A stretch of DNA of 64,000 nt from Pyrenula massariospora (taxonomy: Eukaryota > Ascomycota > Eurotiomycetes > Pyrenulales > Pyrenulaceae). The notes beneath the pieces are model-generated. The model did not search any database. It was given only the letters and a program-made list of their open reading frames with translations, and was not told where the DNA came from. Both the position numbers and the translations under genes were made by a program. The DNA lies in NCBI GenBank assembly GCA_021030905.1, contig JAGFMI010000017.1, positions 124,001 through 188,000 on the forward strand. The letters are read 5' to 3'. Positions 20,296 through 24,574 of this stretch are shown one piece after another (positions within the stretch are counted from its first letter, which is position 1; each line of letters begins with the position of its first letter).

Positions 20296-23262
20296 CTAGT
20301 CTAAGGTCCAATACGTGTCGCTGTAACTTATCAAGCCTCTCCCCTCCCTTGCCAATATTGTGTCCAGCTTGTCATAGTAATGATCAAACAGTGTATGCCT
20401 TCCTTCCTTCCACTCTTTCAAGATGCGAATGATGATCTTTGTTTCTTTCAGGTCACGCTTAGCTCGATCCCTGGTGAAGAGTTGAAGGCGCAAACGCCAT
20501 TTCAGCTTTCGAGCACACGCAAGGGCATCTCCCCCTCGGCCAGGGATTATAGGGTCGGCGCCAGCTTTCACGGCGAGAAGGACTTTGACGAGTCTGAACA
20601 GAGAACGGAACTTAAGTCGTAAGATTGATGGCTCCAGAATGGCATGAATGACATTACCGCCAGGATAGCATTGGTCATTGACTTGCTCGCCAGTATCAAG
20701 CAAAAATGTGAAAAGATCCTCCAAGAACCTTCGAAAGGGAAGAATTGGAGAATAGCTCGAAGAAAAAAAGTCGCTAGCAGCCCACTCATACAATGGACTG
20801 CTATTCATCCCCGCATGCCCACAGGTTGGATGATGTTCCCAAGACCATGGTCCCGAGACTCGACTTTGCATTAACTCTCTCCAGATCTCCGGTGAATATC
20901 TGTGAAAACTGGTAGCAGACTCCGCACTTTGCCTTAATAGACAAATGTGTCTACGTCCAAACCTACCGCCGCAATGTTTCAAAAGGAGTCTTGCCACTTC
21001 CATGCCATTCGGAGAATCATCGCGAAAACAACAAAAAATGGCCAAGTCTAGCATCAATTGTTTTTCTTCTTGAGATAAGATTGGGATAACTTGAAGGCGG
21101 CCTTGAACGTATCCAGATAGGCCGTGCAAGATTCCCACAAGTATGTTAAAGTTCCTAGCATTGATAAGCTTGAGGTCTTTAGGATGAATTGGCAATCGGC
21201 TGCACGCATTACATCGGCCCGCAATGATGCTCTCCCATGTGGGTATAGAATGACCGCCATGAAGAAATATTAAGTTGCTTTCCAGGGCGTTCTGAATTAT
21301 TCGAAAGGTAGATCGGCCTTCTTGTTCCTCTTGCTTCGCAGTCTGTAACAAATGGAAAATGGCGTAATGCAAGATCGGAGACCAGCGCGACCAGTTCTGC
21401 CCACGTGAGATTTGCTTGACTATAACTTCGTACTCATGTCTATGGACAAATTTCTCTTGATCTCTGACTAGATTGATCACTTCATCCCAGCCGATGTCTA
21501 CTTTCACTGCCGCATATTCAATAACAGAAGCATAGATTCGAAGCCAAGGGCAGTCTGGGTACTTTTGCTTAAATAGAACAGACAGATTTCTCCAAACCCA
21601 CTCTAATGTCCTGAAATAAGATTCGACGGTCTTGTGTATCAATGAGACAGCTTCACGGCCTTGCGGTACTCCGAGAAATCGCGTTTCGTGACCTGTGTCA
21701 ACAATCTCAAGTAAGCCACCAAAGTTTGCCAGGAGACGCGACGCGAAGTCTGGCTGACTTAAAGGGTTGTTTCGTGTATAAAGTGTTTCTTCGCCTTTTA
21801 GAACGAAAGCCCAGGCTCCTTGAAGTTGATCGAGTCGAAGAGAGCCGTTATGGTTTAAGATGAGGTGAATAATCAGCGCAGCTCCAGGCCTGACTTCTGA
21901 ACCAATTTTGTTTATGATCTGTTGGTATAGCTCCTCGACCTCGCGAGGTAAAATTTCGTAATTCTGTGCAAGTTCTTCAACCGTAAGTCCTTGCTCGCAG
22001 CCATCAAGTAAGTGATCGAGAGCGAAGCGCGCCCACAGGATAACGCCGTTTGCATCTTCAGCTATATTGTTGCGGATATCAATAGGGAACTCGGTTTTGA
22101 ATTTGTGTTTTCTCAGGTCAATCGCTGCTTCCACATATAGAAGAATACTGTTCTTGTTGTGTTCCTGCATCTTCAGCGTCGGCCGCTTGCGAAGTGCGCT
22201 GATAAGAGAGCCTTCAGGGCGGCTAGCTAAGCACATTTTCGCAAAAGTATGGTCATTCAAGTTGACTAGTGACTGAGCGAGCTCTGCTAGGTCTCCGGTG
22301 TATTCATCAAGACCGTCCACCAGCGCCAATACAGAGACTTTGGCTTTTTCAACAACCTTTCGAATCTGCTCTTTCAAGCCGTCTAGTGAAGCTTGCTCCA
22401 AGTTATAGTTGGCAGCTGAAACTTCAAAATATCGATGTGCTTCAGGAAGAGATTCAGCGAGTTGCAAGGCCATTGACCTGAGCATGCCTTGAATCGTGTT
22501 AGAGATCGCACCACGAGCCCTGAAGTTAAAGTAGAAATGGATCCGTATCCAATTTTGCCCTGCCCCAGGTAGTTGTTTAAGAGTGTATCGGCTTGAAGCT
22601 AGATGTTTCATTAAAGTCGACTTGCCTGACAAAATGGGGGTCAGCGCGTAATGTACAGGTGGCTTTGCAAAGAATTTGCTTGGATCCAGTAGAAAGACAT
22701 CGAATGTATAGCTTGGAACTATCCATCTTCCTTTGATCTAAATAGAAAATTGTAAAGAGTAAGAAAGGTTCATCTAGTCCCATTGGAACAAGAGGGTGAC
22801 CGGTAAATAGCAATAAGACAACAGAAACAAAAAGTAATCGAGAGAGAATGAGGGCAATAAAGATGTATTCGGTGTTCGAAATACCCGTATTTATAAAGGC
22901 CATTCTATGTTCATATGCAAAAACTTATTATAAGACAGATTACCTGATCCCGGCTTTCCTTGAATCCAAAACAGATTGTCATCCGGTGTGCTAAGCCAGT
23001 TCCCGAAAGCAGTCGACCATATCCAATCCAGAGTCTTCGGTGCTGCATCCTGTATTTGGTGCATCCGGTTGTTCATTTCCGAGAAGTAGAGGGCTTTATG
23101 TACGACTTTTTTGACATCAGTCGTTCTGCGGCTAATACATCGCGAGAATGACTCACTGTCAGGTTGTTTGCCTTTCTGCTGTTGGAAGTTGTTGATAATC
23201 TTTCCGTAGTTGAATCCGGTTTGGGCTCCCCCCGAGTTCGTCGAATGGCTGAAATCGGTCAT
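20296..23262 (-). CDS. NACHT NTPase (NLR) with N-terminal RHIM-like amyloid motif
   Basis: Two exons, 23262-22944 and 22625-20296, separated by a 318-nt intron, give 882 residues. The N-terminus has no enzymatic domain, only a short motif at residues 9-26 (N9..G12-A-Q-T-G-F-N18-Y-G....N24-N-F26). After a linker comes SEMNNRMHQI, the usual block before fungal NACHT domains, then the P-loop GKPGSGKST (102-110) and a Walker B-like LVDGLDEY (about 209-216). SRPEGSL, ILWARFALDHLL and SLIHKTVESYF follow, as expected for fungal NLRs. The C-terminal half (about 450 residues) has no clear WD40, TPR or regular ankyrin array, although GADPIIPGRGGDAL resembles a single ankyrin unit. The intron splits the P-loop. 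The gene is divergent to a HeLo gene with the same motif. Likely role: ligand-gated nucleation of the HeLo partner (inferred). Confidence 0.85.
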
Positions 23263-23791
23263 AGTCGCCTTGGCTCAACGTGACTGGCACGAAATTTCAG
23301 AAAGCTTGTCGAATTTGGGAGGTCGTTTATGGCCTGAATTTGATCCTGGTGATTTGAGCAGACTAGCCTGGACGTTATGTGCTGCTTAATGCAAGATCTG
23401 CTAACGGCTAACGAGTGACAGAAGATTAGGGGGCTGCTATTCCTATCGACGTATTTCTACAGCTGCGACTTGAAGTAAAACATCAACCTTGATGATTCCC
23501 TGATAGGTGGAAACAACTCGACAAAGTGCAAAGGTGACAAAGTGCGATCGACGCCCGCCATCAGGCTGGGAAGATATTGTCGAATTCTCATGTTATTGGT
23601 GCAATGTCAGCCACCTCGTCAGGGTTCACAAGCCACATAGCAAGCTGCCAGGCTCCTGCGATAGCCTGGCAGACGATGATTTTCCCATGGCCTGATATGG
23701 ATTGCTCCTGAAGACAATTCCCTACTTGTTCAGGCCTTAAGCAACCTAGTACCCTAATTTCTAAGACCTGCGGTCAAGACAAGCCCAAGTG
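23263..23791. promoter_or_regulatory. 529-bp shared divergent promoter of the NLR/HeLo pair
   Basis: The start codons of the NLR (minus, 23262) and the HeLo protein (plus, 23792) face away from each other across 529 bp. No other open frame of substance is present, so the region most likely carries both promoters. An 8-bp-scale inverted word 'gctgccaggctcctgcgatagcctggcag' occurs at about 23643-23671, with 'ctgccaggct' and 'agcctggcag' as perfect 10-nt arms. Confidence 0.5.
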
Positions 23792-24574
23792 ATGGCAGAA
23801 GCAGGTCTGACCCTTGCCATATTCGGAGCCTTCAACACGGCACTCCAGTACTTCGAATACGCTTACTTAGCGAAGAACTTCGATCGAGACCTAGAAACAG
23901 CGCAACTAAAACTCGATGTCGCGAAGCTCCAGCTATCAAGGTGGGGCCGCACTGTGGGGTTAGACCATTTCGACGAGACTCGGCCGTCACTCTCGCCGGC
24001 TATCTCAGCGTCAGCGGATGAATGCAAGACAGCTGAACAGCTCCTCAACCACATCATCGAGCTCTTCAAAGAGACTGAAAGCAAGTCCGATAAGATAAAA
24101 CCACAACAGCTGCCTGCATCGTCTCCCGACCCTCCAGCAGATCTAGAACCGCCCGCCGCCTCTCTGCACAACAGGCTGAGCAAGCTGTCCCTACGAAACC
24201 TCAAGCCGAAATCGATCCGCGAAAGGACGAAATGGGCACTATTCACAGAGAAGCACGTCCGAAGATTGGTTGAGGATATCACCGACGAAGTGGAAAGTCT
24301 AGTAAAGCTCTTCCCCGCCACACAGCCCCTACAAGAGCAGCTCTACGAAGAGGAGGGTAGAGAATTGGCTTCTGACGAAAACGTCTCCCGTTTAGAGCCC
24401 CTACTCGCAGAGCAAGATCCAAAACTGAGCTCTGCGATCAAAGGAGCTCGTGAGGCTGCGCCGCAGATGATACAGGTCAGCTTCGAGAGGAGCATCAATA
24501 ACCAGGGTCTTCAGATGGGGTATAACTCTGGCGCTATGACGAATCATTTTGGAGCTAAACCTTCATCCTCTTAA
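23792..24574 (+). CDS. HeLo-domain cell-death protein with C-terminal amyloid motif
   Basis: Single exon, 260 residues, starting at the ATG at 23792. Residues 1-56 match the beginning of HET-S-type HeLo domains: a hydrophobic first helix (AGLTLAIFGAFNTALQ), then YFEYAYLAKNF and RDLETAQLKLDVAKLQLSRW. HeLo domains (about 215-225 residues) insert their first helix into the plasma membrane and kill the cell when a C-terminal prion-forming segment assembles. Here the rest of the domain extends to about residue 215. The end of the protein holds a motif at 236-253: N236..G239-L-Q-M-G-Y-N245-S-G....N251-H-F. It is the counterpart of the NLR motif at 22.9-23.3 kb, with 8 of 18 identical positions. The LQMG core resembles the RHIM tetrad. 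Function is inferred from architecture. Confidence 0.85.
   Translation: MAEAGLTLAIFGAFNTALQYFEYAYLAKNFDRDLETAQLKLDVAKLQLSRWGRTVGLDHFDETRPSLSPAISASADECKTAEQLLNHIIELFKETESKSDKIKPQQLPASSPDPPADLEPPAASLHNRLSKLSLRNLKPKSIRERTKWALFTEKHVRRLVEDITDEVESLVKLFPATQPLQEQLYEEEGRELASDENVSRLEPLLAEQDPKLSSAIKGAREAAPQMIQVSFERSINNQGLQMGYNSGAMTNHFGAKPSSS

What the first reader, a model, noticed from the sequence alone, without database searches (positions are those of the whole stretch)
22944..24574. Divergent NLR/HeLo pair sharing a RHIM-like amyloid motif: candidate templated cell-death system
The NLR (minus strand) starts with N9-S-G-G-A-Q-T-G-F-N-Y-G-K-I-I-N-N-F26. The HeLo protein (plus strand) ends with N236-N-Q-G-L-Q-M-G-Y-N-S-G-A-M-T-N-H-F253. 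Eight of 18 positions are identical and two more are conservative (Y/F, M/I), with no gap, although the proteins are otherwise unrelated. Established knowledge: in HET-S/NWD2 and HELLP/PNT1 systems an NLR carries an N-terminal copy of the executor's C-terminal prion motif and templates its fold. Executor and NLR genes are usually adjacent. The Q-x-G-x-N core resembles the pseudo-palindromic (PP) and RHIM motifs. A HeLo (not HeLo-like) domain joined to this motif type would be an unusual or new pairing. Inference: a complete non-self recognition cell-death module.
Basis: partly seen in the sequence, partly recalled or inferred. Interest (0 to 1): 0.93.

Follow-up and report, generated by a model that had tools for sequence, protein, structure and literature searches.

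The report
Fungal receptor–killer pair, shared amyloid tag
Two neighbouring fungal genes, an immune-type receptor and a membrane-attacking cell-death protein, carry the same short amyloid tag and most likely form another member of a known class of prion-like fungal self-destruct switches, here built from a somewhat different choice of parts.

Summary
A NACHT-type NLR (minus strand, two exons, 882 aa) and a HeLo protein (plus strand, 260 aa) are divergent neighbours, 529 bp between ATGs. NLR residues 4-26 and HeLo residues 231-253 align ungapped (10/23 identical, BLOSUM62 54; 0 of 3000 shuffles) and are each other's best partner in the window's six frames. The NLR motif fits a HeLo relative from another fungus better still (14/25). 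The HeLo copy matches Pfam PF17046 just below its cut-off; the literature says PF17046 is the PP (pseudo-palindromic, RHIM-related) motif under a wrong name. Best reading: a PP-type NLR/executor amyloid signalosome of the HET-S/NWD2 and HELLP/PNT1 kind, a new member of a known kind. The parts differ from the two worked-out PP systems: HeLo instead of HeLo-like, NACHT instead of NB-ARC/TPR. The genome also holds an unlinked PNT1-like PP receptor with no neighbouring effector that I could recognise; its motif fits this HeLo protein better than the adjacent NLR's does, so two receptors may share one executor. Amyloid formation, cell death and any non-self trigger are inferred. NLR-side conservation could not be tested.

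The parts
22944..23262 (-). NLR exon 1 (residues 1-106 and the first base of codon 107): amyloid motif, linker, start of NACHT up to Walker A
   Evidence: translation and GT-AG junction; NPHP3_N 20.2 bits (cut-off 24.8) on residues 77-107
23185..23253 (-). NLR amyloid-motif copy, residues 4-26 (core G-A-Q-T-G-F-N-Y-G)
   Evidence: matches HeLo C-terminus 10/23, score 54, 0 of 3000 shuffles; HMM of six other motif rows finds exon 1 at E 5.4e-6, best of 2000 shuffles 0.037
22626..22943 (-). NLR intron, 318 nt, phase 1, inside Walker A (predicted, no RNA evidence)
   Evidence: gene calls of relatives P0007 and P0010 begin just after this point
20296..22625 (-). NLR exon 2: rest of NACHT (DGLDEY, LASRP), then a C-terminal region in which Pfam finds no repeats; an ankyrin-like stretch is seen by eye only
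   Evidence: NPHP3_N 39.8 bits, over its cut-off; NACHT 17.0 bits, below its cut-off; 42 matches to this exon in the genome including itself, a lower bound
23263..23791 (.). 529-bp divergent intergenic region between the two start codons
23792..24574 (+). HeLo executor gene, 260 aa, one open frame
   Evidence: start of the protein agrees with all five relatives
23813..24370 (+). HeLo domain (PF14479), residues 8-193; the most hydrophobic 19-residue stretch of the protein is residues 1-19
   Evidence: PF14479 E 6.9e-34; 2wvo/2wvn/2wvq HET-s HeLo; hydropathy
24482..24550 (+). HeLo C-terminal PP motif copy, residues 231-253 (core N-Q-G-L-Q-M-G-Y-N-S-G)
   Evidence: PF17046 E 1.5e-4, 22.0 bits, cut-off 23.2; kept in P0002, P0003, P0005

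Best explanation
A two-gene PP-type amyloid signalosome. Shown: an NLR with an N-terminal PP-like motif and a NACHT domain, next to and divergent from a HeLo protein with the same motif at its C-terminus. Inferred from the HET-S/NWD2 and HELLP/PNT1 precedents: an unknown cue is sensed by the C-terminal part of the NLR; the NACHT domain drives oligomerisation; the clustered N-terminal motifs nucleate an amyloid; this templates the HeLo protein's C-terminal motif; the HeLo domain then exposes its N-terminal helix, goes to the membrane and kills the fungal cell.
For: Motif similarity beyond all shuffles and reciprocal best in the window. PP identity of the executor copy by PF17046, which PMC12261475 calls 'PP (misnamed SesB)'; the NxGxQxGxN core given in PMC9815663 is met exactly in the HeLo protein. 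NLR motif placed like published PP motifs, most at positions 5-9. HeLo domain certain. Motif kept in 3 of 5 HeLo relatives, one of them at 58% identity from a Pyrenula record; NLR motif matches that relative's C-terminus 14/25, score 69, 0 of 3000 shuffles. HeLo relative P0004 (78%) and NLR relative P0007 (49%) each come from a single contig of the same length, 6321 bases, same source, so probably one contig carrying both genes. A probable HET-s-type divergent HeLo/NLR pair is in the same genome.
Against: The NLR copy gives no PF17046 match at E up to 10 and has S where the core has its first N. The HeLo copy is just below the curated cut-off (22.0 against 23.2; 21.7 bits, E 0.0118 in the whole-genome search, where 1 of 14 control genomes also rang at E up to 10). 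The relatives score lower: P0002 14.5, P0003 9.9, P0005 11.6 bits. P0005 against the NLR motif is not significant ungapped (303 of 3000 shuffles; it has a one-residue deletion). P0006 lacks the core and P0004 ends before it. The motif is no better conserved than the domain (P0002: 13/23 against 119/197). No listed NLR relative shows the motif (0 of 120).
Confidence: 0.85

Rival explanations
1. Shared executor: the HeLo protein serves two receptors of different class, the adjacent NACHT NLR and an unlinked PNT1-like PP receptor at about C11:199.6 kb, so this is part of a small network rather than a closed pair.
For: HeLo motif against C11 motif 12/21, score 69, higher than against its neighbour (54). 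The C11 gene has the PP motif, then a Walker A-like GMGGVG, then a TPR-rich ORF. No HeLo or HeLo-like match lies near it, and no effector was recognised among the open frames of C11:182-212 kb. Among the PP-like places that I examined the HeLo protein is the only C-terminal copy.
Against: 18 of 26 pattern places were not read, and effector copies outside the pattern or with introns would be missed. The C11 neighbourhood was read by eye from open frames, with Pfam on five ORFs of L027; no family search for lipases was made. NB-ARC was not matched by Pfam in the C11 ORF; it is read from the sequence. In P. anserina HET-S, HELLF and HELLP do not cross-seed (PMC7889193), though their motifs belong to different families or subfamilies.
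Confidence: 0.25
2. Chance or compositional similarity: both ends are merely N/G/Q-rich disordered tails.
For: Composition is biased; the NLR side scores nothing with PF17046.
Against: 0 of 2000, 0 of 2000 and 0 of 3000 composition-keeping shuffles; 14/25 match to a HeLo relative from another fungus; PF17046 hit on the HeLo side; reciprocal best in the window.
Confidence: 0.04
3. Decaying or exapted module: the NLR no longer signals, or the HeLo protein acts alone as an incompatibility protein, as HET-S can.
For: A HET-domain gene about 1.4 kb from the NLR's 3' end has a stop inside its HET region, so this may be turnover-prone ground; Pfam finds no WD/ANK/TPR repeats in the NLR.
Against: Both genes of the pair are open, with Walker A intact after the predicted splice, and have relatives elsewhere.
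Confidence: 0.1

Closest known systems
HELLP/PNT1 (P. anserina) and CgHELLP/CgSBP/CgPNT1 (C. globosum), PP-motif signalosomes (PMC7885112, passages and section 6)
   Same: PP-type motif at NLR N-terminus and executor C-terminus, single copy, adjacent genes, membrane-targeting helical executor
   Different: Executor there is HeLo-like and the NLR is NB-ARC with TPRs; here HeLo (PF14479) and NACHT without recognised repeats
HET-S/NWD2 (P. anserina), HET-s-motif signalosome
   Same: HeLo executor beside a NACHT NLR; N-terminal/C-terminal motif sharing
   Different: HET-s motif is a different family and present twice in the executor; here PP-type, once. No PF11558 match in this protein
Wojciechowski 2022 catalogue of PP (NLR07) NLRs and effectors (PMC9815663, passages and sections 19 and 24)
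   Same: Same kind of pair; 296 NLRs, 37 neighbouring proteins, 106 effectors with NLR07; PP with pore-forming and enzymatic effectors
   Different: The parts that I saw do not say whether HeLo proper (PF14479) is among the PP effectors; supplement not read
Mammalian RHIM (RIPK1/RIPK3) and bacterial BASS3
   Same: G-x-Q-x-G core (RHIM); the literature reports partial cross-seeding of PP and RHIM (PMC7885112) and mentions it for BASS3 (PMC7889193)
   Different: Different protein architectures; no direct sequence comparison made here

Membership tests
PP-motif NLR/executor amyloid signalosome | PP motif (NxGxQxGxN core / PF17046) at executor C-terminus | tested here: met
   exact core; PF17046 E 1.5e-4, 22.0 bits, just under the curated cut-off of 23.2; definition from PMC9815663 and PMC12261475
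PP-motif NLR/executor amyloid signalosome | Same motif at the NLR's N-terminus | tested here: met
   10/23, 0 of 3000 shuffles; HMM of six other rows, the partner among them, E 5.4e-6. But no PF17046 match and S for the first core N
PP-motif NLR/executor amyloid signalosome | Genes adjacent | tested here: met
   divergent, 529 bp between ATGs
PP-motif NLR/executor amyloid signalosome | Executor with pore-forming/cell-death domain | tested here: met
   HeLo PF14479, HET-s HeLo structures; activity not tested
PP-motif NLR/executor amyloid signalosome | Motif conserved in orthologs of both genes | tested here: inconclusive
   HeLo side 3 of 5, one truncated, one lacking the core; NLR side 0 of 120 listed, with exon 1 absent from the gene calls of P0007 and P0010
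PP-motif NLR/executor amyloid signalosome | Motifs form amyloid and convert each other; conversion kills | not testable with these tools
   needs bench work
HET-S/NWD2 (HRAM) signalosome | Two HET-s repeats at executor C-terminus (PF11558) | tested here: not met
   no PF11558 match in this protein at E up to 1; the genome's one PF11558 match is at C3
HELLP/PNT1 in the strict sense | HeLo-like (PF17111) executor and NB-ARC-TPR receptor | tested here: not met
   executor is PF14479, receptor NPHP3_N/NACHT
sigma-motif system | PF17106 sigma motif | tested here: not met
   no match in the HeLo protein or NLR exons nor, at E up to 10, in the genome

The most novel reading that the evidence does not exclude
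One HeLo executor answers to two receptors of different nucleotide-binding class and different genomic location, the adjacent NACHT NLR and a PNT1-like PP receptor without a recognised effector of its own, making a converging fungal NLR network wired only by a 20-residue amyloid code.
Probability: 0.22. Interest if true: 0.6.

Novelty: new member of a known kind. Interest (0 to 1): 0.36.

Why it matters
It adds a well-supported PP pair outside the two experimentally studied PP species, shows that the PP code can sit on a HeLo executor and a NACHT receptor, and gives a genome with a probable HET-s-type pair and a PP-type pair, useful for testing whether the motif alone decides which receptor fires which executor. 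The PNT1-like receptor without a recognised effector makes a converging pathway directly testable.

Tried and rejected
Third protein search with NLR exon 1: no candidate shared three words. Relatives in viral contigs (HeLo profile A1, NLR profile A2) and genome contigs (HeLo P0001): none confirmed. Sigma family in the genome: none. Pattern G.Q.G.N.G over the genome: 26 places against 16 for the reversed control. Two are the window copies; C8:648669 and C11:199536 look like PP. Of the 22 others I read four (C4, C14, C1, C28): C14 is inside an ankyrin-type open frame and none looked like a PP gene end; 18 were not read. The contig-length argument for conserved adjacency works for 1 of 5 HeLo relatives. 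NLR profile A2 against the PDB: nothing at E up to 0.01. HET-s residue 33 aligns to N29 here; a change at position 33 is said to remove pore-forming activity (PMC5485727), but which residue is the inactive one I only recall, so I did not use it.
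Full report
What is there. The window lies in an unnamed 37.8-Mb, 33-contig genome at C8:124001-188000. Gene families and the nearest named relatives (Pyrenula for HeLo; Lithohypha, Exophiala, Knufia, Neophaeococcomyces among those for the NLR) point to a filamentous ascomycete, probably of the Chaetothyriomycetidae (taxonomic placement recalled). 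On the minus strand, exon 1 (23262-22944) and exon 2 (22625-20296) give an 882-aa NLR; the predicted 318-nt GT-AG intron falls inside Walker A and its removal gives GKPGSGKSTLMK. On the plus strand 23792-24574 gives a 260-aa HeLo protein.

The shared motif. NLR 4-26 and HeLo 231-253 align ungapped, 10/23 identical, score 54. No shuffle reached that score (2000 + 2000; 3000). Each is the other's best non-self match in six frames of the window (54 against 39 and 43), and the other 19 HeLo loci of the genome give at most 39. An HMM built from six motif rows that exclude the NLR finds NLR exon 1 at E 5.4e-6, against 0.037 for the best of 2000 shuffles; 120 other NLR proteins were in the same set and none is among the 12 rows printed. 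The six rows include the partner HeLo, three HeLo relatives (two with identical rows) and two own-genome copies, so they are not independent of the pairing claim.

Which motif. The HeLo copy matches PF17046 (E 1.5e-4, 22.0 bits; curated cut-off 23.2). PMC12261475 (passages) calls PF17046 'PP (misnamed SesB)', and PMC9815663 (passages and sections 19 and 24) gives the PP core as NxGxQxGxN, which the HeLo copy meets exactly. The NLR copy has S for the first N and is not found by PF17046. Most published PP motifs in NLRs sit at positions 5-9, much as here. No match to HET-s (PF11558) or sigma (PF17106) was listed for these proteins.

Relatives. Five HeLo relatives were found among 1344 candidates. 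Three (P0002 Pyrenula, P0003, P0005) keep the C-terminal motif, P0004 ends before it and P0006 lacks its core. PF17046 scores of the three are 14.5, 9.9 and 11.6 bits, all below the cut-off. Identity to the window protein in P0002 is 119/197 in the HeLo part, 18/34 in the linker and 13/23 in the motif, so the motif is kept but not more conserved than the domain. The NLR motif matches P0002 at 14/25 (score 69) and P0003 at 13/25 (64), each with 0 of 3000 shuffles; P0005 does not pass (30; 303 of 3000). NLR relatives: 437 passed, of 8000 candidates scored, and 120 were listed; none of the 120 shows GxQxG in its first 80 residues. P0007 and P0010 start right after Walker A, consistent with the same intron and an unread exon 1. 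NLR-side conservation is therefore untested.

Executor and receptor. The HeLo domain matches the HET-s HeLo structures 2wvo, 2wvn and 2wvq (E 1.1e-35 to 1.1e-33 with profile A1; 2e-24 for 2wvo with one sequence). Its most hydrophobic 19-residue stretch is at the very N-terminus, mean hydropathy 1.04, where HET-S forms its membrane helix (PMC5485727 parts 1-2, PMC7885112 passages). In the NLR, NPHP3_N is over its cut-off and NACHT below it, and no repeats are matched.

Genome context. PF17046 at E up to 10 gives three places, one over the cut-off: C8:648662, C8:148497 (this HeLo protein, 21.7 bits) and C11:199526; 1 of 14 control genomes also rings, below the cut-off. C11 reads as PP, then a Walker A-like GMGGVG, then a TPR-rich protein, the PNT1 layout (NB-ARC by eye). 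No effector was recognised in C11:182-212 kb, by eye from open frames and Pfam on five ORFs; no HeLo or HeLo-like match lies there. Its motif matches this HeLo protein at 12/21, score 69, above the neighbour's 54. C8:648662 puts a PP copy before a helical, weakly PigL_N-like ORF (18.5 bits, below cut-off; PF17111 bears that name here) and a WW ORF. At C3, a HeLo protein with a sub-threshold PF11558 match (26.0 bits, 23.0; cut-off 32.2) lies divergent to a NACHT-ankyrin NLR, so HET-s-type and PP-type pairs probably coexist.

What is known. NLR-to-HeLo amyloid signalling and PP pairs are established (PMC5485727 parts 1-2; PMC7885112 passages and section 6; PMC12881547 passages). PMC12258605 (passages) reports amyloid N-termini on both T-NACHT (44%) and NB-ARC (56%) NLRs of Sordariales, so a NACHT partner is not in itself odd. 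PMC4518210 (passages) says PP occurs as a single copy in HeLo proteins, with HeLo, HeLo-like and SesA pooled. In the searches and the parts of papers named I saw no statement of HeLo proper with PP; supplements and subscription papers were not read, so this is no claim of absence. PMC7889193 (passages) says branched pathways, one kind of receptor to several unlinked executors, are predicted in other species; two receptors to one executor would be the converse.

Verdict. A PP-type NLR/HeLo amyloid signalosome, new member of a known kind, confidence 0.85. Steps from sensing to death are inferred.

Noticed in passing
C11:199493-199597 (-), about L027:7494-7598, and ORF L027:5004-7253: PP motif ahead of a TPR-rich NLR-like protein (PNT1 layout) with no neighbouring effector recognised; its motif scores highest, of the N-terminal copies compared, with the window's HeLo protein.
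   Followed up: partly
C8:648662-648727 (-), L025:8498-8743: PP motif over the PF17046 cut-off, followed by a helical PigL_N-like ORF and a WW ORF, beside an ORF that by eye is a polyketide synthase; a PP copy apparently not on an NLR.
   Followed up: partly
C3, L059:3500-8714: Divergent HeLo (sub-threshold PF11558 at its C-terminus) and NACHT-ankyrin NLR: probable HET-s-type pair in the same genome.
   Followed up: partly
window 17513-17968 (+): HET-domain (PF06985) gene about 1.4 kb beyond the NLR's 3' end, interrupted by an in-frame stop inside the HET region; pseudogene or intron, not resolved.
   Followed up: partly
C9:924404-926061: HeLo match directly followed by a match to the NLR's NACHT exon on the same strand: probable all-in-one HeLo-NLR.
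   Followed up: no
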